Below are positions 5,708 through 57,881 of a stretch of DNA of 64,000 bases, one piece after another. The translations under genes were made by a program, and so were the position numbers. Positions within the stretch are counted from its first letter, which is position 1. Each line of letters opens with the position of its first letter. This DNA is from Halobacillus mangrovi (GTDB lineage Bacteria > Bacillota > Bacilli > Bacillales > Halobacillaceae). Under the pieces are notes generated by a model. That model was not told where the DNA came from and ran no database searches. It was given only the letters and a program-made list of their open reading frames with translations. The stretch spans positions 4,053,501 to 4,117,500 of the forward strand of contig NZ_CP020772.1 of the NCBI RefSeq assembly GCF_002097535.1. The letters are read 5' to 3'.

Positions 5708-5749
5708 AGGGAGAAAGAATTTCCCAAATGAATAGTGATGAATCCATTT

Positions 5750-5909
5750 CTTATCAAGAGAGGCAGAGGGACTGGCCCTGTGAAGCCTCAGCAACCACTG
5801 GTAGATCCAGTAAGGTGCTACGTCCAGCAAGTTGTGACCCAACTTGGAAGATAAGAAGAAGATCGGAAAGTTAAAGTCTTCTTCTTAAGAAGGCTTTTTT
5901 TATTTTTCA
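5750..5909 (+). promoter_or_regulatory. SAM-I (S-box) riboswitch with terminator
   Basis: The aptamer spans 5750-5855. P1 is CTTATC pairing with GATAAG. The conserved GAGGGACTGGCCC, the GAAGCCTCAGCAACC core, AGGTGCTA and the P4 CCAGCAAG ... CTTGG segments are all present in S-box order. A terminator follows: arms 5873-5882 and 5888-5897, then a T-rich run to 5909. The 3' side of P1 (about 5853-5862, AAGAAGAAGA) is complementary to 5877-5886 inside the terminator and makes a clear antiterminator. High SAM should therefore end transcription before metI. Confidence 0.95.
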
Positions 5910-48490: not shown

Positions 48491-48927
48491 TAAACCAAAC
48501 ACCTTTTTATCTATAAGTTTCTTTCTGTCATTTTACAAGATTAACTATAGACACTCAATTATTCTGAAGATTCTAGCTTCAAACTTAATTTACATACATA
48601 TTTTACCTTTAAAAACCGCATATAGACATGCGCCCATTTTAGTCTAACCGACATAAAGTGTCCGTATTTTTACTTAGTTCAAATAGATTATGTATGAACC
48701 AAATCATACTTTATATTTATTTTTTTCTATATGTAATTTTTTTGTAAATACAATTATCCCAGTGTTTATGACACTATATCTAATCCGTTATTACCATAAA
48801 TTTGTTCCTGTGTTACTCATTGCCAACCCTTCCTATCGTCCTATACAATTAATTTATGCATACGTGTTAAATACATCTACATTAATAATACGTATAGCAT
48901 ACAAATTATTAAGGAGAGGTGATTGAT
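48491..48927. other. AT-rich intergenic region upstream of the GH31 gene
   Basis: 437 bp without a convincing gene; it must hold the promoters of the divergent oxidoreductase and GH31 genes. The only notable structure is an imperfect inverted repeat (ATGCATACGT 48856-48865 and ACGTATAGCAT 48890-48900) that ends 10 bp before the GH31 ribosome binding site. No copy of the palindrome found near the ROK gene was seen here. Confidence 0.5.
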
Positions 48928-51540
48928 TTGGAGAAAAACCACAGGACGAAGAAGATCAGCAAAGGTTTAGCCACGATGACTGTAGCGACAACTCTGTTAC
49001 TGCCGTCTGTCATCCCGGAATCTAGTGTATTGGCTGTAGCTGATACCTATCCGGAAAAAGAACTGGACAAAGCAGCTGCTATGCAGCAAAAGCTAATGGT
49101 ACAGTCTGTCGAAGCTGTTAATAACGGAGTGAAGCTTGTACTATCTGATAACTACAAAGCTCACATTAAGTTAAAAACAGAAGATGTGGCGAAAATCTCG
49201 ATTCTGAAGCAAGGAGAAGAAGAAAAACAAACGGCAGCCATTACGGAAACCAATTGGGATACTCCAAGCTTTGAAATGGAAGAAACTGAAGATACGATTT
49301 CCATTTCTACCGATGAGATCACAGTGAAGATTAACAAGCAGCCTTTTGGAATTAAGTTTTTAGACAGTGAAGGAAATATCATCAACCAGGACAATATGGA
49401 TTATGGCGCTGGGTATGAAGACGGAAAGCCTTATGTATTTAAAGACACGACTAATGATGAAGCTTTTTATGGTTTCGGTGAACAGGCTGGTGATTTTAAC
49501 CGCCGCGGTGACAGCATGGGTATGTGGAACAACGATGCTTATAATTACAACAAAGATACGAAATACCTTTACACCACGATACCATTTTTCATTGGGCTAA
49601 AAGATGAAAAAGCTTATGGTATCTTTTTTGATAACAGCAATCGTTCCTATTATGAAATGGCTAGTGAAAGTGACGATTACTATTACTTTTACGCAAATGA
49701 TGGACAATTGAGCTATTATTTTGCTTACGGACCTGATATTCAAGATGTACTGACGCGTTATAGTCAATTGACTGGGACGATGCAGCGGCCTCCAAAATGG
49801 GCGATCGGACTACACCAAAGTAAGTGGGGTTACGAAACAGCTGATGAAATTAAAGGGATTGTAGAAAAATATCGTGAGAAAGATATTCCTCTTGATGGTG
49901 TTCACCTGGACATTGATCACATGGATGGTTACCGAAACTTCACATGGGGTGAAGACTTTACAGAAGATCCTGCTGCCTTTAATCAATGGCTGGAAGATAA
50001 AGGTGTAAGTTCTGTGGCAGTAAGTGACCCAGGAATTAAAGTAGATGAAGGCTACTACATGTACGATGAAGGAACCGCCAATGACTATTGGGCTACTAAT
50101 CCTGACGGCAGTCCTTATATTGGAGAAGTGTGGCCTGGAGATTCTGTCTTCCCTGACTTTGCAGAAGAAAATGTTCGTGACTGGTGGGCGGAAAGCCACC
50201 GTACGATTTTTGATGCCGGAGTAGATGGGATATGGAATGATATGAACGAACCTGCAGTTTTTGATACCCCTACCAAGACTCAACCTCTTGATGTTAAATA
50301 CGGAGACATGTTGCACTCCGAATTTCACAACATGTTTGCTCATTATGAAGCAATGTCCTCTGACAAAGCCTTTGATATCTTAAAACCTAACAAGCGTCCA
50401 TTTGTACTTACCAGAGACATGTACGCAGGCTCCCAACGTTACAGCACACTTTGGACAGGTGATAACGAAAGTTCATGGGAGTCCATGCGTTTAGCTATCC
50501 CAATGAATAACAATGTCAGTTTATCCGGTGTACCATTTGTAGGTAATGACATTGGAGGATTCGCCAAGCGTCCAACTCCAGAACTATTTGCACGTTGGAT
50601 CGAATTCGGCGTATTCATTCCTTTCTCTCGTATACATGCAGATAACGGAAGTACCGTAGCGTTTGATCCAGATGCAAAAGATATTCCCGGGCAAGAACCA
50701 TGGCAATATGGAGAAGAGGTTGAAGAAATCAGTAAGAAGTATATCGAACAGCGCTACAAGTTGATGCCTTACTTGTACAATGCCTTTATTGAGGCAAGTG
50801 AAAATGGCACTCCAGTTCAACAGCCGCTTGTTTACCAGTTCCAAGAGGATGAAAACACCTATGATATCAATCAACAATTCATGTTTGGCTCTTCTCTTCT
50901 TGTTGCTCCTGTGGTAGAAGAGGGAGCTACTTCCAGAGATGTTTATCTTCCAGAAGGTGAAACCTGGGTAGACTACTGGACTGGCGAAGAGCATGAAGGC
51001 GGTCAAACAATCAACAGAGAAGCTGACTTGAGTACGCTTCCGCTTTACGTCAAAAAAGGGGACATCATCCCTCACCGTAATGTCCAGAAACACACAGGTG
51101 AAAAACCATTAGAGAACTTGATCCTGGATACTTACTTGGAAGACAAGTCTTCTTACACGTTCATCGAAGACGATGGCGAGACAGAAGATTACAAGAACGG
51201 CGAATTCAATGAAACGACTTTTAACCTAAAACGTAAAGGGAAGCATGTAGAATTCACGTCTAAGCAGAAAGTCTCTAATTATGACTCTTCCCTTGAAACG
51301 TATACGCTAAAATTAAACAACGAAAACATGCCAAGAAAAGTCCAAGCAGCATCGACGAAGTATAAAGCAGTAGATTCTCCAGAAGAAGTGAAGCAAAACG
51401 AAAACACTTACTATTATGATGAAGAAAACGAGACGACTTATGTGAATATTCCTGTGAATGAAACGAAGAAAGTAAAAATCTTCTTCCACAGTGATAAGAA
51501 AACAGAAAAAGCAAAAGGTAAAGCCGAGAATAATCATTAA
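48928..51540 (+). CDS. Secreted GH31 alpha-glucosidase
   Basis: 870 residues. Signal peptide about 1-37 (basic start KNHRTKK, hydrophobic core, SVLAVA cleavage region). A GH31 catalytic barrel follows: GLHQSKWGY, the nucleophile in GIWNDMNEP (Asp438), acid/base in WTGDNESSW (Asp512) and GNDIGGF. C-terminal beta domains and a Lys-rich acidic tail complete it. It should release glucose from alpha-linked oligosaccharides outside the cell. TTG at 48928 follows AAGGAGAGG with 8-nt spacing; an in-frame GTG at 48919 is too close. It converges on the giant GH27-like/GH31 gene. Confidence 0.9.
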   Translation: MEKNHRTKKISKGLATMTVATTLLLPSVIPESSVLAVADTYPEKELDKAAAMQQKLMVQSVEAVNNGVKLVLSDNYKAHIKLKTEDVAKISILKQGEEEKQTAAITETNWDTPSFEMEETEDTISISTDEITVKINKQPFGIKFLDSEGNIINQDNMDYGAGYEDGKPYVFKDTTNDEAFYGFGEQAGDFNRRGDSMGMWNNDAYNYNKDTKYLYTTIPFFIGLKDEKAYGIFFDNSNRSYYEMASESDDYYYFYANDGQLSYYFAYGPDIQDVLTRYSQLTGTMQRPPKWAIGLHQSKWGYETADEIKGIVEKYREKDIPLDGVHLDIDHMDGYRNFTWGEDFTEDPAAFNQWLEDKGVSSVAVSDPGIKVDEGYYMYDEGTANDYWATNPDGSPYIGEVWPGDSVFPDFAEENVRDWWAESHRTIFDAGVDGIWNDMNEPAVFDTPTKTQPLDVKYGDMLHSEFHNMFAHYEAMSSDKAFDILKPNKRPFVLTRDMYAGSQRYSTLWTGDNESSWESMRLAIPMNNNVSLSGVPFVGNDIGGFAKRPTPELFARWIEFGVFIPFSRIHADNGSTVAFDPDAKDIPGQEPWQYGEEVEEISKKYIEQRYKLMPYLYNAFIEASENGTPVQQPLVYQFQEDENTYDINQQFMFGSSLLVAPVVEEGATSRDVYLPEGETWVDYWTGEEHEGGQTINREADLSTLPLYVKKGDIIPHRNVQKHTGEKPLENLILDTYLEDKSSYTFIEDDGETEDYKNGEFNETTFNLKRKGKHVEFTSKQKVSNYDSSLETYTLKLNNENMPRKVQAASTKYKAVDSPEEVKQNENTYYYDEENETTYVNIPVNETKKVKIFFHSDKKTEKAKGKAENNH

Positions 51541-51551
51541 ACACCAATGAA

Positions 51552-51583
51552 AAAGGTCCGCGGGTATATTCCGCGGACCCTTT
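51552..51583. terminator. Bidirectional terminator between the two GH31 genes
   Basis: Arms 51552-51563 and 51571-51582 (GGTCCGCGG core) with A-run and T-run on either side. Confidence 0.8.
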
Positions 51584-51586
51584 CTC

Positions 51587-54500
51587 TTATTTTGTTACCT
51601 TATGTTTCACTCTGATTGTCAGTTCACCGTCAGACTTAGCTTTAGTTTTTATCTGAATCGTTTTTTGTTTTTCGTCATATAAGAAAGAATTGTTCTTAGC
51701 TATATTGACTTCTTTTACTGATTCTAGCTTCCTTCCGTTGACTTTAATCCATTTCGGAGCCTCCTCGAATGGCAATTCGACGGTGTAGGTTCGTTTTTCA
51801 ACCATTCCTTCATAGGAGCCTTGCCTTTTTCCAATGGTCACCAGCGTCTCATCTTTCTGCTTCTCTGCTGTAATTTCCGTTGTCGCCAATGCCCCCTCTT
51901 CATACTTATAGGTAGACCCATCATCTTCATATAAGGTATACGTAGAAAGATCACCAGACTGATAAGGGTAAATTCTTAAGCTGATCTGTTTATTTGGCTT
52001 TTCCCCTACATACTGAATATCTTCTCCCAGAGGAATGATCGCTCCTTCTTTAACAAACACAGGTGTTTTTTCTAATGGTACGTCGTAGCTGATCGTTTGT
52101 CCCCCTCCATACACCGCTTTCCCATTCCATTCATACCAATTTCCATCTGGAAGGTAGACGTTACGCTCTCTACCTCCCTCTTTATGAACAGGAGCGACAA
52201 GCAGCGAAGGGCCGAACATCCACTGATCTTTAAGATTGCTAACGTTCGGGTCTGTTTGATAATCAAAAACCAACGGCCTCATTATTGGCAGATTTTTTTC
52301 GGACGTATCTCTGACGGCCGAATAAATATAAGGAAGCAAACGATAACGCTGTCTGATCGCCTCGGTTACAATGGTTTCTGCTTCTTCTCCAAATGCCCAA
52401 GGTTCACGTTCTCCATCTGCTCCATGTGAACGGAAGATTGGCATATAAGCCGCTGATTGCATCCAACGTGTGTACAATTCAGAAGAAGGCACCCCTGAAA
52501 ATCCTCCTGCATCGGTCGTAAAATAAGGCATACCTGACATAGATGCTGTAAGTCCAAGCTGCAAGTTGTGAGTCAGCGCCTCCCATGAAGCATTGACATC
52601 ACCACTCCATAAGGTCGTCCCATATTCGCTGATTCCCGAGAATCCGGAGCGCGCAAGAGACCACACACGTTCATCAGTGTAAGATCTTTGTCCTTCATAA
52701 AAGGCTTTAGATTCTACTAAAGCATAGACATTCCTAATTTCATCCGCTCTTCCTCCTTGAAAGTGATCACGGATAGGATCTGTTTGTTGTTCTGGTTCAT
52801 TCAAATCGATCCACCATCCCTTCGTTCCGGCATCATGAAGAGTTTTGGCTTGTTGAGTGTACCATTTTGCTGCTTCTTCATTGGTAAAATCAACGAGACC
52901 GCCACCTCCGTACCAGGCTGGGTATGTGATCGTTCGATTTGAAGTGTCCTGAACAAAGTAGCCTTTATCATCAGCCTCACTATAATTATTGGCAGTTGAC
53001 TCAATGTAAGGATCTACAATAGGAGTGACTTTTACACCTTTATCAGCTAATTGCTTAAGGTGATCTTCAGGATTCGAAAAAGCACCCGACCAAGTAAAAT
53101 CAAAATATTGATCCTCTTTCGCCCAGTAAACATCCAGAATCAGCCCATCCATAGGAATGGCTTTGTCTCTAAAGGTACTTGCAATTTGATTCACTTCCTC
53201 CCAGCTTTTATATCCGAATCTCGATTGAATATAGCCGAGCGACCATTGTGGAGGTAAAGGAGGCTCTCCTGTCAGCTCTCCAAAGGAGTCCATCACTTGA
53301 GGAAAATCTGGTCCAGCCATGAAATAGTAGACCATTTCTCCGTTTGGAGCATAGAAGGAATAGGCTGACTTATTATCTTTTCCTAGATCAAATTGAGCGT
53401 TCTGATGGGTATTATCAAAATACACTCCATAACCGTTTGTGGAGGTCAAAAAAGTTCCTGAAATATCAGAGGTATTTCCTCCAAGACCATCAACCATGGA
53501 ATTATTCATCGTAATTGTTGTCCCTCGCTTATCGAGCTCTTTAGTGTGACGATCCATTCCCAGTCCATAAAGGTGCTCATCAGCATTTAATTCAAAAATT
53601 TGATATACGCCTTTATACTGATCATACCCAAGACCTCCATCTGTTTGATCTTGGGTGAGTAAGGTTTTATTATGACGGTCATAGTAGGCAAGACGGAAAG
53701 GGTTCTTATAAGCCCTTACCGTCAGTTCTTCTGTGGAAATTTTATAATAATTTTTTTCATCGGTAATACGATACAGAGCCTTTGCTTTTTCATTATCCAC
53801 TACATAAGACTTTTTCTTAGAAAATGTTCCTGTCGGCTCCATCCAAACACGGGCGATTCCGTCCTTTAAAAAAGACAATCTTACGGCTGACTGGTCTTCC
53901 ATATGGAAGGTGATTTCACTATCCTTTTCTAAATAAGGGCTTGAAGTATCCAGTGAGGGTAGAGTAGTAACCTGCGGCTGCTGTAGATCTGCTTTAACTA
54001 TTTCAAGCTTTTCAATATCAAGAAGGCTTCCGTTCTCTCCTTCCAGAGAGGCGCCGACTTTAACCACTTCATTCGCCTCAACTGAGATAAGGGTCGTTCC
54101 CACAGAATCCCAGTTGCTAGTTGATATCTCCTCAGACTCCTTTCCACCACCGTAAGACACATAGATTTCTGCTTGCTTTGCTGTTTCGCTTTTTCTTGCC
54201 TTCGCTCTTACCGTATAGTCTCCTTCAGGAAGTGTGACGTACTGCCACACTTCAGATTTACCGGCTAACCGAGCAAATGATGACCCATTTTCAGCTTCCA
54301 TAGAAGTACGATTCAATGCAGAGGATGTCCAACCTTCTACTCCTATTTCAAAACCTGAATTGGAAAGATATTTTATCGAGGTCTCATCTCCAACTTTCTC
54401 TATCTTCACATCATCGATTTGAAAAGAAGTATTTTCAGGTGCTACCGTGTAGAATCCTATATCCAGTTGACCGCTCGTGACCTCAAAAGTCTGAGTGATT

Positions 54501-56641
54501 TCTTTCCACTGAAACTCAGGTTGTTCTGGTTTTATATCTACATTAATTTGGTCACTGCCATGCTCAGATACTTCCATTCGTGCGATGTTGCCAGCACTTT
54601 CGAATGTCGGGTCATTATAAGGCTGCAATTTCACCCAGGCACTTACTTTATATTCTCCATTTTCAATCCCTTTCAGCTTCTGATGGATACTGGCCTGGTA
54701 AGGTTCCGACTTATAAAAATAATGCTTCGATCCCTCATGAGCGTCTTCCGTGTTTACCCCCGTCCAGGCATTGTCAGGGTTCCAAACATCCCAGCCAGTA
54801 TGGTCTCCCATTTCAAAATCTCCGTTAGTCAGGATTACTTCTGGATGGAGGAGCTCGATATAATCCAGGTGCAGTTCTCCCTCATCCCCTGCACTATTCT
54901 TCACAGTAACCAGGTTTTCTCCTTCTTCCAATTGGAAAGTGGCCTGTTTGCCTTTCCAAGTATCCCAGTCATTTGTCGATTCGAACGTTACTGACTGGTT
55001 TTGTTCATTGACCACTAACGTTTTTGTAGAAGGATTATCTGATCCATTGGCATAACGAAAGTTCAAGGTGTAATCACCAGCGGTTGGAACAGAAATAGCC
55101 ACGGTTACAGAAGCATCGGGTTGGTCCATGTTTTCAATATAACCAAAACTATTAAAACCTTGTTGCTCGTTATTGAAATAAGCACCCTGTTGATAGGAAG
55201 CTACTTCAGTTTCATATTTTTTATTCGCAGATCGAGGTACGACCTTGACCATGCTTGTATCGTGTGGAGTTAAAGAGGCTTTGTGATTGTAACGATATCC
55301 AATATCTTCATGAGCCCACAAGTCTCTCACATACGCTTCTGTCTCGAGACCCAATTCCTTAGAAAAATCTACGGAAAGTTCTTTTCTTACATCCGATCGG
55401 TTAAACAAGCCGACCACCCATGCCCCATCGGGTAACTGCCCAAGCCAGCGTTCACTATCACGACTACTAAACTTGTAATGATCGTTATTATAAAAAATCG
55501 GCTTCCCTGCTAATCCTTGCTGATTCAGTTCAATAAGCTCTGAGTTTTGATAGAAATGCGCATCTTCTCCAATGGTGTCGAACTGATCGGCAATCGCAAT
55601 CGGGGAACCTGCCATTGTGAAGAGGGAGACAGCCGTTTTCTTTTCTTCCTCTTCAAACTCTCCTGTGAATGTATTCATACGCAGAAAATCTCCATCGAGA
55701 ATCATAGAGTTACGTCCGGACACATCGGCAAATCCGGTGAAGCCTTGGAATGGGTTCGCCCATTGCGACCATGTATCCGTCCACTCCTGACGTCTCCCAC
55801 TGATGTGATCCCATCCTCCATGGAAAACATCTTCATCAATACGAATCATATCTCCGTACTTGAGTTCCAGTTCCGCATGGTTTTTCAAGTGGGGCATAAC
55901 TAAACTTAATGTCATGTCATCTCCTGCCGCTTCTTCCATCCATCTAAGGGCGGTTTCATAGTTTTCACGCCCATGAGCAATTCCTACATCTCCTATACTT
56001 TTATCTGTCCCCGTTTCATACCAGGAAAGAAAATCGACTCGCAAGAATTTGGCGCCTTGCTCTTTAAAATAATTTACATAGCCCTGCACAAATTCTTTCG
56101 CCCCATCTTTTGTAACGTCCACCCAGTATAACGAGGTGTCTTGCCCCCCGTTAAAACGGTCCCCTTCCGTGACAATGTCTTTAATCATAATATCCGGTCT
56201 CCCGATGACCGTCGCATTTTCATTATTCACAGCTGCCGGCGTCACCCATAAAGGATTATAATAGATTCCCAGATTCATTCCTTTGCTCTCGATATAGTCC
56301 GCCCAATATTTCCAGTCATGTTCCCAAGAATCGTTGTGAGAGATGATGTACCCATTTTCCGTATGTTTGGTTGAGCCTTCGATCCATCCATCTGTACTCA
56401 TCATGTCATACCCGTAGGGTTGAAAGTTCTCGGCCATCCAATCAATATTCTGCTTCCATCGATTCTCGGGTAAATAAGTATTATTGGTAAATTGATGTTC
56501 GTAAGAAATCCAATAAAGAGGGCCCGATCCTTTCGCCGTCCCAGGGCTTTCCCGTGCTTCCACATGAGTGATCCCAAAAATCAAAATGAAAAATAAAGAC
56601 CAAACACACAATGAATTCCTCAGGCTTCTTGAGTGCATCAC
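51587..56641 (-). CDS. Giant secreted GH27-like / CBM / GH31 multidomain glycoside hydrolase
   Basis: 1,684 residues. Signal peptide about 1-30. Residues about 40-470 form a clan-D (GH27, alpha-galactosidase/isomaltodextranase-type) barrel and beta-sandwich: YNPLWVTPAAV, nucleophile candidate Asp203 (FLRVDFLSW) and acid/base candidate Asp271 (RIDEDVFHGGW). Three carbohydrate-binding-like beta domains follow: CBM35-like 473-600, then CBM4/9-like 603-750 and 756-885. Residues about 890-1600 are a complete GH31 domain with nucleophile Asp1279 (WWIDLNEPE) and acid/base Asp1348 (WSGDVN). Both active sites look intact. GTG start (ATG at 56638 is equally possible) after AAAGGAGG. 25 bp downstream of a ROK regulator gene. 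Confidence 0.87.
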   Translation of the reverse strand: MMHSRSLRNSLCVWSLFFILIFGITHVEARESPGTAKGSGPLYWISYEHQFTNNTYLPENRWKQNIDWMAENFQPYGYDMMSTDGWIEGSTKHTENGYIISHNDSWEHDWKYWADYIESKGMNLGIYYNPLWVTPAAVNNENATVIGRPDIMIKDIVTEGDRFNGGQDTSLYWVDVTKDGAKEFVQGYVNYFKEQGAKFLRVDFLSWYETGTDKSIGDVGIAHGRENYETALRWMEEAAGDDMTLSLVMPHLKNHAELELKYGDMIRIDEDVFHGGWDHISGRRQEWTDTWSQWANPFQGFTGFADVSGRNSMILDGDFLRMNTFTGEFEEEEKKTAVSLFTMAGSPIAIADQFDTIGEDAHFYQNSELIELNQQGLAGKPIFYNNDHYKFSSRDSERWLGQLPDGAWVVGLFNRSDVRKELSVDFSKELGLETEAYVRDLWAHEDIGYRYNHKASLTPHDTSMVKVVPRSANKKYETEVASYQQGAYFNNEQQGFNSFGYIENMDQPDASVTVAISVPTAGDYTLNFRYANGSDNPSTKTLVVNEQNQSVTFESTNDWDTWKGKQATFQLEEGENLVTVKNSAGDEGELHLDYIELLHPEVILTNGDFEMGDHTGWDVWNPDNAWTGVNTEDAHEGSKHYFYKSEPYQASIHQKLKGIENGEYKVSAWVKLQPYNDPTFESAGNIARMEVSEHGSDQINVDIKPEQPEFQWKEITQTFEVTSGQLDIGFYTVAPENTSFQIDDVKIEKVGDETSIKYLSNSGFEIGVEGWTSSALNRTSMEAENGSSFARLAGKSEVWQYVTLPEGDYTVRAKARKSETAKQAEIYVSYGGGKESEEISTSNWDSVGTTLISVEANEVVKVGASLEGENGSLLDIEKLEIVKADLQQPQVTTLPSLDTSSPYLEKDSEITFHMEDQSAVRLSFLKDGIARVWMEPTGTFSKKKSYVVDNEKAKALYRITDEKNYYKISTEELTVRAYKNPFRLAYYDRHNKTLLTQDQTDGGLGYDQYKGVYQIFELNADEHLYGLGMDRHTKELDKRGTTITMNNSMVDGLGGNTSDISGTFLTSTNGYGVYFDNTHQNAQFDLGKDNKSAYSFYAPNGEMVYYFMAGPDFPQVMDSFGELTGEPPLPPQWSLGYIQSRFGYKSWEEVNQIASTFRDKAIPMDGLILDVYWAKEDQYFDFTWSGAFSNPEDHLKQLADKGVKVTPIVDPYIESTANNYSEADDKGYFVQDTSNRTITYPAWYGGGGLVDFTNEEAAKWYTQQAKTLHDAGTKGWWIDLNEPEQQTDPIRDHFQGGRADEIRNVYALVESKAFYEGQRSYTDERVWSLARSGFSGISEYGTTLWSGDVNASWEALTHNLQLGLTASMSGMPYFTTDAGGFSGVPSSELYTRWMQSAAYMPIFRSHGADGEREPWAFGEEAETIVTEAIRQRYRLLPYIYSAVRDTSEKNLPIMRPLVFDYQTDPNVSNLKDQWMFGPSLLVAPVHKEGGRERNVYLPDGNWYEWNGKAVYGGGQTISYDVPLEKTPVFVKEGAIIPLGEDIQYVGEKPNKQISLRIYPYQSGDLSTYTLYEDDGSTYKYEEGALATTEITAEKQKDETLVTIGKRQGSYEGMVEKRTYTVELPFEEAPKWIKVNGRKLESVKEVNIAKNNSFLYDEKQKTIQIKTKAKSDGELTIRVKHKVTK

Positions 56642-56666
56642 TAAAAGTTCCTCCTTTTATAGTCCT

Positions 56667-57881
56667 TTATGAGAGAAGTAAACGACTTTCCTCATTGATG
56701 GGGTGCTCGAACCAATGATCAATCGCTTGTAAAGCTGCTCCTTGCACCCAAGCGTCATCTCCTAACTTGGAGACTTGGAATGTGACTTCACATCCAGCTT
56801 TTGAAAAGAAGTTATCCGATGCTACGTCAAGGGTGTAAGTCATAAAGAAATCCTCTGCGACTAAACCTTCGCCAATGAATATGACAGCAGAAGGGTTAAA
56901 TACGTTGATACAGTTTAAAACCCCGATCCCGAGGTTCTCCCCCAGCTTCCTTAAAAGATGTTTAGCTAGTGGATCTCCTGAACGTGCAGCTGAAGTCACT
57001 TGTTTAAAACCTAAATTCGCTTCACGGAGGGAGCTTTCTGGATAAAGGTGTTTGATTTGCCTACCTTCCGATTCTAGAAATCGTTCAGAAGCGTGCATTT
57101 CAAGACAACCTTTCTGGCCGCAATGACAGCGGTATCCACCCTGCTTGATCACCATATGGCCAACTTCACCAGCCCCGCCATGATGACCAGCATATACGTT
57201 CCCATTCAAAAAAAGAGAGGCCCCTACACCCGCTCCTATCGAAATGCACAAAAAATCATCTAATTCTTTTCCATAACCAAATTTGTGCTCAGCTTTTGTG
57301 TAAGCGTTTACATTATTGTCGATAAAAATAGGCACGTTGAACGCTTCCCACATTTTTTTGCGAACTTCTACTTGTTCCCAGCCAAGTAAGGTCGATCGAA
57401 TAACTTTTCCTTGTTTGTTATTAATTAACCCTGATGCAGCAATCCCTATGCCAATCATTTTACTTGCAGGAATTTTTGTTTCTTGAATGATTCGATGAAT
57501 AAGATGCACGATGGTATGTAGCAAGGTTTCTGGTGGGGTGGTCCTTTTAAAAGGAAGCGTGTGTTTACAAAGAATATGTGCATTAAGATTTGTACTAGCC
57601 ACAATGACTTGGGATTCCTCAATTTTTACCCCAAAAGCATATCCATAGTCTTCGTTGAAGGATAGTAAAGTCGCTTTCCTTCCCCCTGTTGAATTCGCTG
57701 TTCCTTTTTCGAAAACCAAACCGGCTGATAGCAGATCCTCTGTAATATAAGTCACCGTAGATAAACCTAAATTCAGTGCTTTGGATATCTCAGTTCGACT
57801 AATCGGTTGGTGGGTACGAATGGTAGAAACCACGTGAGAACGATTCAATTCTTTTATCAGTGCTTTATTTCCTACTCGCAT
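56667..57881 (-). CDS. ROK family transcriptional regulator (XylR/NagC-like)
   Basis: 404 residues. The N-terminal winged helix (about 10-70: ISRTEISKALNLGLSTVTYITEDLLSAG) is followed by a ROK sugar-kinase-like domain with nucleotide motifs (IGIGIAASGLINNKQG, SIGAGVGASLFLNGNVYAG) and the zinc motif CHCGQKGCLEMHAS. The C-terminal part contains VIFIGEGLVAEDFF. Probably a repressor released by a sugar. It is 25 bp upstream of the giant glycosidase, so it most likely controls that gene and itself. A palindrome upstream fits its operator. Confidence 0.9.
   Translation of the reverse strand: MRVGNKALIKELNRSHVVSTIRTHQPISRTEISKALNLGLSTVTYITEDLLSAGLVFEKGTANSTGGRKATLLSFNEDYGYAFGVKIEESQVIVASTNLNAHILCKHTLPFKRTTPPETLLHTIVHLIHRIIQETKIPASKMIGIGIAASGLINNKQGKVIRSTLLGWEQVEVRKKMWEAFNVPIFIDNNVNAYTKAEHKFGYGKELDDFLCISIGAGVGASLFLNGNVYAGHHGGAGEVGHMVIKQGGYRCHCGQKGCLEMHASERFLESEGRQIKHLYPESSLREANLGFKQVTSAARSGDPLAKHLLRKLGENLGIGVLNCINVFNPSAVIFIGEGLVAEDFFMTYTLDVASDNFFSKAGCEVTFQVSKLGDDAWVQGAALQAIDHWFEHPINEESRLLLS

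What the first reader, a model, noticed from the sequence alone, without database searches (positions are those of the whole stretch)
51587..56641. GH27-like, three CBM-like and GH31 domains fused in one 1,684-residue secreted protein
Seen: one uninterrupted frame with a signal peptide, a clan-D barrel with candidate catalytic Asp203/Asp271, three beta-sandwich binding-like domains, and a complete GH31 domain with Asp1279/Asp1348. Known: GH27 holds alpha-galactosidases and isomaltodextranases; GH31 holds alpha-glucosidases and transglucosidases. Inference: two successive cleavage steps on one branched or alpha-1,6/alpha-1,3 glucan or galactoside, tethered to substrate by the binding domains. 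The clan-D part lacks the usual NDPDML segment, so its specificity may be new.
Basis: partly seen in the sequence, partly recalled or inferred. Interest (0 to 1): 0.78.

Follow-up and report, generated by a model that had tools for sequence, protein, structure and literature searches.

The report
Isomaltodextranase fused to GH31 domain
A bacterium encodes one long, probably secreted protein that joins a known dextran-trimming enzyme, three sugar-binding-like pieces and a second sugar-cutting enzyme whose exact target is not yet known, probably to digest dextran-like sugars.

Summary
In detail: window 51587-56641, minus strand, is one open 1,684-residue frame with a ribosome-binding site, a hydrophobic N-terminus, two catalytic domains and three beta-sandwich-like modules. 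The specificity reading changes. The N-terminal domain looks like an ordinary isomaltodextranase: 53% identical to the solved enzyme 5awo, both proposed catalytic Asp residues conserved, so no new specificity is indicated. The first module is CBM35; the second most resembles a module of the Paenibacillus alpha-1,6-glucosyltransferase 5x7o and CBM61; the third has no family name. The GH31 domain is complete but forms its own clade (about 35% identity or less to solved GH31 sequences compared), so its linkage specificity is open.

The architecture is not unique: 24 of 88 database hits share it. Some related loci carry GH66, a second GH31, a PrsA-like foldase and a ROK regulator; this genome has its GH66 at a second locus. 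Best reading: an alpha-1,6-glucan (dextran) degrader in which isomaltodextranase releases isomaltose and GH31 deals with what it leaves. A bolder alternative, GH31 building isomaltosyl ends from maltodextrin, is not excluded.

The parts
51587..56641 (-). Whole gene, 1,684 aa fused enzyme (GTG start, stop included)
   Evidence: 87% identical full-length copy in G021
56650..56655 (-). AGGAGG ribosome-binding site, 8 bases before GTG
   Evidence: read from sequence
56558..56641 (-). Probable signal peptide, residues 1-28 (end approximate)
   Evidence: hydropathy; inference, no signal-peptide program run
55232..56560 (-). GH27 isomaltodextranase catalytic part with C-terminal beta domain, residues 28-470
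   Evidence: phmmer to 5awo E 2e-181; 235 of 440 aligned residues identical; Melibiase_C over cut-off
56033..56035 (-). Asp203, candidate nucleophile of GH27
   Evidence: aligned to chain Asp201 of 5awo; role recalled, not from a call
55829..55831 (-). Asp271, candidate acid/base of GH27
   Evidence: aligned to chain Asp269 of 5awo; role recalled
54848..55231 (-). CBM-A, CBM35, residues 471-598 (matching region also in 5awo)
   Evidence: PF16990 30.1 bits, cut-off 28; alignment to 5awo runs to residue 597
54407..54844 (-). CBM-B, CBM61-like beta-sandwich, residues 600-745
53966..54406 (-). CBM-C, beta-strand module without family name, residues 746-892
   Evidence: strands in the model; 30-37% identical in the 8 more distant fused relatives printed
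51590..53965 (-). GH31 region, residues 893-1684 (N-domain, barrel, C-domain, DUF5110)
   Evidence: PF13802, PF01055, PF21365, PF17137 all over cut-off
52805..52807 (-). Asp1279, GH31 candidate nucleophile
   Evidence: aligned to the D/A position of 6jr6/6jr8; invariant in window and seven loci
52598..52600 (-). Asp1348, GH31 candidate acid/base
   Evidence: role recalled from the family
56667..57881 (-). ROK-family regulator, 25 bases upstream, possibly same transcript
   Evidence: PF00480 197.5 bits; ROK also directly upstream in L004, L016, L017, L018, L020 (by similarity)
48919..51540 (+). Companion GH31, convergent with the fused gene, with the DIDxM motif of alpha-glucosidases (motif meaning recalled)
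   Evidence: motif DIDHM
51550..51584 (.). Terminator-like hairpin between the two convergent genes, found on both strands

Best explanation
A probably secreted two-enzyme protein for digesting alpha-1,6-glucan (dextran and branched dextran). Shown by sequence: the N-terminal part matches isomaltodextranase with its CBM35; the C-terminal half is a complete GH31 with intact catalytic residues in a clade of its own; two further modules sit between them. Inferred: the GH27 part removes isomaltose units from non-reducing ends while the CBMs hold the chain, and the GH31 part acts as an exo-alpha-glucosidase on what isomaltodextranase leaves (short branch stubs, odd end residues, or isomaltose itself). 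GH66 enzymes would supply new ends and products would be imported; import is inferred from solute-binding proteins in related loci (L016, L018, L021), none being shown in this window.
For: GH27 part: 5awo match and 53% identity. CBM-A also in 5awo. CBM-B closest to a module of an alpha-1,6-glucosyltransferase. CBM35 of CITases binds alpha-1,6-glucan (PMC5408701, passages). GH66 genes in the loci L016, L018, L020 (fused gene) and L022 (standalone isomaltodextranase), in G372 (L038), and at a second locus of this genome next to another GH31. Co-occurrence: 4 of the 8 genomes with this GH27 also have GH66, against 35 of 397 overall, hypergeometric p 0.0028. GH31 residues that I recall as the -1 subsite set (Asp in the second barrel strand, both catalytic Asp, the Arg, Asp and His that follow) are invariant in the window and seven loci. 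FjDexUL of Flavobacterium shows GH31, GH66, GH97 and GH65 enzymes degrading a branched dextran together (PMC10316084, passages).
Against: No characterised GH31 is close: 33% to 6jr6, 27% to Agd31B, 35% over part of BoGH31A. The barrel motif D-V-Y-W-A resembles the transglucosylase Agd31B (D-L-Y-W-F) more than the D-I-D-x-M of the companion GH31. That companion already looks like an alpha-glucosidase, so a plain isomaltase would be redundant. The co-occurrence test treats related genomes as independent; 4 of the 8 (G024, G028, G366, G378) lack GH66. GH66 is absent from the flanks of L015, L017, L019 and L021 (the flanks of L019 and L021 are cut short by contig ends), and this genome's only GH66 match lies far away at another locus.
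Confidence: 0.55

Rival explanations
1. GH31 is a transferase that adds glucosyl units to maltodextrin ends to make isomaltosyl ends, and the fused isomaltodextranase then releases isomaltose, so one protein turns maltodextrin into isomaltose.
For: GH31 barrel motifs resemble the transglucosylase Agd31B. The alpha-1,6-glucosyltransferase 5x7o has the module closest to CBM-B, and its whole-protein score of 414 bits in three stretches falls to 281 for the GH31 region alone, so its binding modules match too; the 5x7o-like protein P0074 is listed with CBM35. A related route is in print: isomaltodextranase giving isomaltose from maltodextrin after a 46GT, and a multidomain CITase plus 6-glucosyltransferase of Thermoanaerobacter (PMC13084667, passages). 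One related locus, L038, has an alpha-amylase-family protein.
Against: The GH31 clade is separate from the 5x7o-like rows and from the Agd31B side. The 46GT of that paper is GH15, not GH31.
Confidence: 0.22
2. GH31 is an endodextranase like FjDex31A and opens new ends for the exo-acting isomaltodextranase.
For: 6jr6, which I recall to be FjDex31A, is the best-scoring solved relative, 444 bits against 330 for the next; endo action by FjDex31A is reported (PMC10316084 and PMC9061262, passages).
Against: Placing the clade with 6jr6 is rejected (p-AU 0.0019); 6jr6 groups with the companion GH31s instead; motif D-I-G-W in 6jr6 against D-V-Y-W here.
Confidence: 0.12
3. GH31 is an alpha-xylosidase or acts on another sugar unrelated to dextran.
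For: The top NCBIfam model is an alpha-xylosidase (PRK10658), 344 bits, with alpha-glucosidase MalA close at 325; both far below their cut-offs of 606 and 800. BoGH31A xylosidase scores 330 bits.
Against: GH66-containing neighbourhoods of relatives and fusion to an isomaltodextranase.
Confidence: 0.06

Closest known systems
Isomaltodextranase of GH27, PDB 5awo (organism Arthrobacter globiformis recalled; the call names only 'Isomaltodextranase')
   Same: Residues 28-597 align nearly end to end, including the CBM35-like region; 279 of 567 residues identical, 235 of 440 in the GH27 part; both Asp residues conserved
   Different: Here followed by two more modules and a GH31; the 5awo chain ends after the CBM35-like region
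GH31 protein 6jr6 (recalled as FjDex31A, dextranase of Flavobacterium johnsoniae)
   Same: Best-scoring solved GH31 relative, 444 bits, 33% identity, same catalytic residues
   Different: Separate clade, p-AU 0.0019 against joining; no GH27 in the chain
Alpha-1,6-glucosyltransferase of Paenibacillus sp. 598K, PDB 5x7o
   Same: GH31 with further binding modules; its module 1127-1281 is the best structural match of CBM-B
   Different: GH31 domain in another clade as judged by the 5x7o-like rows P0074, P0079; its modules follow GH31 instead of preceding it; no GH27
Agd31B, 4-alpha-glucosyltransferase, PDB 5i23/4b9y
   Same: Similar barrel motifs: D-x-Y-W, GWWxDLxEPE, RxGFxGxxYG; 27% identity
   Different: Separate clade with full support
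CITase plus 6-glucosyltransferase multidomain enzyme of Thermoanaerobacter thermocopriae
   Same: Another single protein with two catalytic domains of alpha-1,6-glucan metabolism (PMC13084667, passage)
   Different: CITase instead of isomaltodextranase; takes part in making cyclic isomaltooligosaccharides

Membership tests
GH27 isomaltodextranase | High similarity along the whole catalytic domain to a characterised isomaltodextranase | tested here: met
   E 2e-181 to 5awo; 53% identity in 440 residues; with 5awo in one 48-row branch, 100/97, of the midpoint-rooted tree
GH27 isomaltodextranase | Two catalytic Asp residues | tested here: met
   Asp203 and Asp271 align with Asp201 and Asp269 of the chain; catalytic role of these recalled
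GH27 isomaltodextranase | C-terminal CBM35-like region as in 5awo | tested here: met
GH27 isomaltodextranase | Releases isomaltose from dextran | not testable with these tools
   needs an assay
GH27 alpha-galactosidase (Melibiase_2 profile) | Barrel profile over its curated cut-off | tested here: not met
   17 bits against 23
GH31 | N-domain, TIM barrel, C-domain and DUF5110 in order, over cut-off | tested here: met
GH31 | Catalytic nucleophile and acid/base Asp | tested here: met
GH31 dextranase of FjDex31A type | Same clade as 6jr6 | tested here: not met
   p-AU 0.0019
GH31 6-alpha-glucosyltransferase (5x7o type) | Same clade as 5x7o-like sequences | tested here: not met
   separate fully supported clades; 5x7o itself not in the trees, P0074 (matched to 5x7o) and P0079 stood in for it
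GH31 6-alpha-glucosyltransferase (5x7o type) | Forms alpha-1,6 transfer products from maltodextrin | not testable with these tools
   needs an assay
CBM61 | CBM-B shares the CBM61 fold | tested here: inconclusive
CBM35 | CBM-A over the profile's cut-off | tested here: met
   30.1 bits against 28

The most novel reading that the evidence does not exclude
One secreted polypeptide that converts maltodextrin into isomaltose: its GH31 half, of an unassigned GH31 clade, builds isomaltosyl ends by transglucosylation and its isomaltodextranase half cuts them off, channelling sugar into an isomaltose uptake route.
Probability: 0.2. Interest if true: 0.6.

Novelty: new variant of a known kind. Interest (0 to 1): 0.36.

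Why it matters
The fused GH31 clade has no member among the solved structures I searched, and in my protein searches it is mostly joined to isomaltodextranase (24 fused hits against the unfused P0090 and P0091, the short P0092, and P0011 with only the start of GH31), so its partner is a strong clue to its substrate. Assaying the two halves apart and together would assign a GH31 clade and show whether fusion speeds branched-dextran breakdown, of use for dextran removal and isomaltose production.

Tried and rejected
New clan-D specificity: rejected, isomaltodextranase 5awo matches nearly end to end.

Convergent fusion or module swap: in the GH27 tree the window lineage (P0001-P0003) groups with a 595-aa standalone isomaltodextranase of Priestia megaterium (99/97), apart from 22 other fused proteins, and one clade of these 25 fused GH27 domains is rejected (p-AU 5.6e-5). 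A quick GH31 tree placed the window lineage inside the other fused proteins (SH-aLRT 92), which would have suggested a swap. The careful GH31 tree places it as sister of all the rest (98/95), in agreement with GH27. So an old fusion with later losses or splits explains both trees; repeated fusion is not excluded. One clade of the 22 others in GH31 is not rejected (p-AU 0.148), the unfused P0090 and P0091 lying among them in the best tree. P0011, cut short within GH31, was in the GH27 tree (unresolved, apart from both fused groups) but not in the GH31 trees.

Structure of the GH31 half: the model from 8 rows had mean pLDDT 43 and was not used. The CBM-B/CBM-C model had mean pLDDT 63; the VIA matches cover mainly model residues 2-158, so CBM-C was barely tested.

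Papers that I looked up by DOI for FjDex31A, the Paenibacillus transferase, the GH31 subfamilies and the isomaltodextranase structure are not held (DOIs recalled, the first also seen in the reference list printed). Searches that could show the fusion in print: isomaltodextranase, 4 papers; 0 papers; GH27, GH31, dextran, multidomain, 2 papers; isomalto-dextranase, 14 papers; GH27, GH31, GH66, 8 papers. Of those listings I read passages of two papers (PMC13084667, PMC10316084) and saw only titles and starts of abstracts of the rest; nothing I saw describes it. That is not proof of absence.

Labels in my scripts: 'TapA-like' for a protein beside GH66 is recalled (Pfam found no family in the L020 copy); 'HK', 'PAS-HK' and 'ABCperm' were read by eye, not scanned.

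Full report
Check. The interval 51587-56641 codes on the minus strand for 1,684 residues without a stop. The start is GTG followed by ATG, with AGGAGG 8 bases upstream, and residues about 9-28 are hydrophobic. Of 21 other genomes of the genus searched, one, G021, carries a full-length copy, 87% identical, also with a ROK gene beside it. Database proteins P0002 and P0003 are 97% and 90% identical over residues 28-610.

N-terminal half. The best solved relative of residues 28-597 is isomaltodextranase 5awo, E 2e-181. From that alignment I counted 279 of 567 identical residues, and 235 of 440 up to residue 470; Asp203 and Asp271 fall on Asp201 and Asp269 of the chain. I recall Asp198 and Asp266 as the published catalytic pair, which fits an offset of three, but the paper was not held. 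The barrel profile Melibiase_2 stays below its cut-off (17 against 23 bits) while Melibiase_C and CBM_35 exceed theirs.

GH31 half. All four GH31 segments are present. Asp1279 and Asp1348 are invariant in the window and seven loci aligned. Against solved structures the domain alone scores 444 bits with 6jr6 (recalled as FjDex31A), 330 with Agd31B, 330 with BoGH31A and 281 with 5x7o; identity is 33% to 6jr6, 27% to Agd31B and 35% over part of BoGH31A. In a careful tree of 26 rows the fused clade (7 rows, one of them the unfused P0091) is one group at 100/100; the Agd31B side, the 6jr6 plus alpha-glucosidase side and two 5x7o-like sequences are three others, BoGH31A stands alone, and joining the clade to 6jr6 is rejected (p-AU 0.0019). 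The motif after the second barrel strand is D-V-Y-W-A here, D-A/V-Y-W-A in the six relatives shown, D-L-Y-W-F in Agd31B, D-I-G-W in 6jr6 and D-I-D-H-M in the neighbouring GH31 of this window. So the domain is an intact GH31 of unassigned specificity. The attempted model was unusable (pLDDT 43).

How common. Of 88 database hits to residues 28-610 (candidates limited by the tool to about 926-2947 residues), 24 carry both GH27 and a full-length GH31; P0011 carries GH27 and only the start of GH31. Named holders include Halobacillus, Pontibacillus, Niallia, Bacillus, Halalkalibacter, Mesobacillus, Paenibacillus and Clostridium. In 397 genomes of the order, 8 have a GH27 of this kind; two of these have it in frames of 1,689 and 2,094 residues, this genome and G087; G021 is not among the matches of that draw. 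A GH31 of 50% identity or more was found in none of the five genomes of these eight with standalone isomaltodextranase only (G079, G024, G028, G378, G366); G372 keeps a 52% identical C-terminal fragment beside a standalone isomaltodextranase. Unfused GH31 of this clade does occur: P0090 and P0091, with P0092 a 683-residue, apparently partial protein (one search listed the best 120 of 231 hits, and the next after these three was at 35%).

Evolution. GH27 and GH31 trees both separate the window lineage from the 22 other fused proteins. In GH27 the fused proteins are not one clade, since standalone enzymes such as the 595-residue Priestia protein lie between them (p-AU 5.6e-5 against one clade). 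An old fusion with repeated loss or splitting is the simplest reading; repeated fusion remains possible, and the place of P0011 is unresolved.

Neighbourhood. Upstream at 25 bases is a ROK regulator; downstream, convergent across a terminator-like hairpin, is a second GH31. One genome-contig scan gave eight loci, seven with a fused gene and one (L022) with the standalone enzyme. Among the seven, ROK lies directly upstream in 4 (L016, L017, L018, L020), and the same four have a companion GH31 and a PrsA-like foldase gene; GH66 lies within the flanks of 3 (L016, L018, L020); L019 and L021 instead have an AraC-type response regulator and a solute-binding protein upstream; L015 has none of these. 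Gene kinds rest on Pfam for one member of each group and similarity for the rest. L022 has GH66, companion GH31 and the foldase gene. L018 and G087, and L022 and G079, hold the same stretches (100% identical proteins) and are not independent. This genome carries GH66 and a third GH31 side by side at a second locus (L042); that GH66 scores alike with solved entries named CITase and dextranase (474 and 473 bits). GH66 is present in 35 of 397 genomes of the order and in 4 of the 8 with this GH27 (G000, G079, G087, G372); hypergeometric p 0.0028, without correction for kinship.

Mechanism. Shown: domain identities and intact active-site residues. Inferred from the known family: release of isomaltose from non-reducing ends. 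Inferred from related loci and CBMs: alpha-1,6-glucan as substrate. Open: what GH31 does. [quoted passage not shown] The transferase alternative has support from the Agd31B-like motif, from a binding module shared with the Paenibacillus transferase, and from the printed proposal that isomaltodextranase yields isomaltose from maltodextrin together with a glucosyltransferase, there of GH15 (PMC13084667, passages).

Verdict. Real, correctly described apart from the unstated strand, with a known first half and an unassigned second half. A new variant of a known kind, moderately interesting.

Noticed in passing
window 5748-5857 (+): SAM riboswitch, 102.8 bits, the only Rfam match at gathering threshold in the window.
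   Followed up: no
homologs, after window-protein residue about 106-112 (e.g. L015-L021): In 37 GH27 homologs of those compared (73 rows in the tree) an insertion of 178-386 residues interrupts the barrel; in P0006 and P0009 it holds a CBM_4_9 match, in P0010 none was found there. The window lineage lacks it.
   Followed up: partly
L038:8003-9289 (G372): A GH31 C-terminal fragment reads in frame behind a Sda (sporulation inhibitor A) domain, as if a deletion had removed most of a fused gene.
   Followed up: partly
P0042: A 1,082-residue protein listed with Melibiase_C and PF01636 (recalled as a phosphotransferase family) in one chain.
   Followed up: no
G040, G135, G234, G238: GH66 matches split or partial within frames of 1,439-1,974 residues, as in CITase with an inserted module, possibly further fusions.
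   Followed up: no
L016, L020, L022, L037, L038: A probably secreted protein of 277-399 residues lies next to GH66 in these loci; no Pfam match in the L020 copy, the only one scanned.
   Followed up: partly
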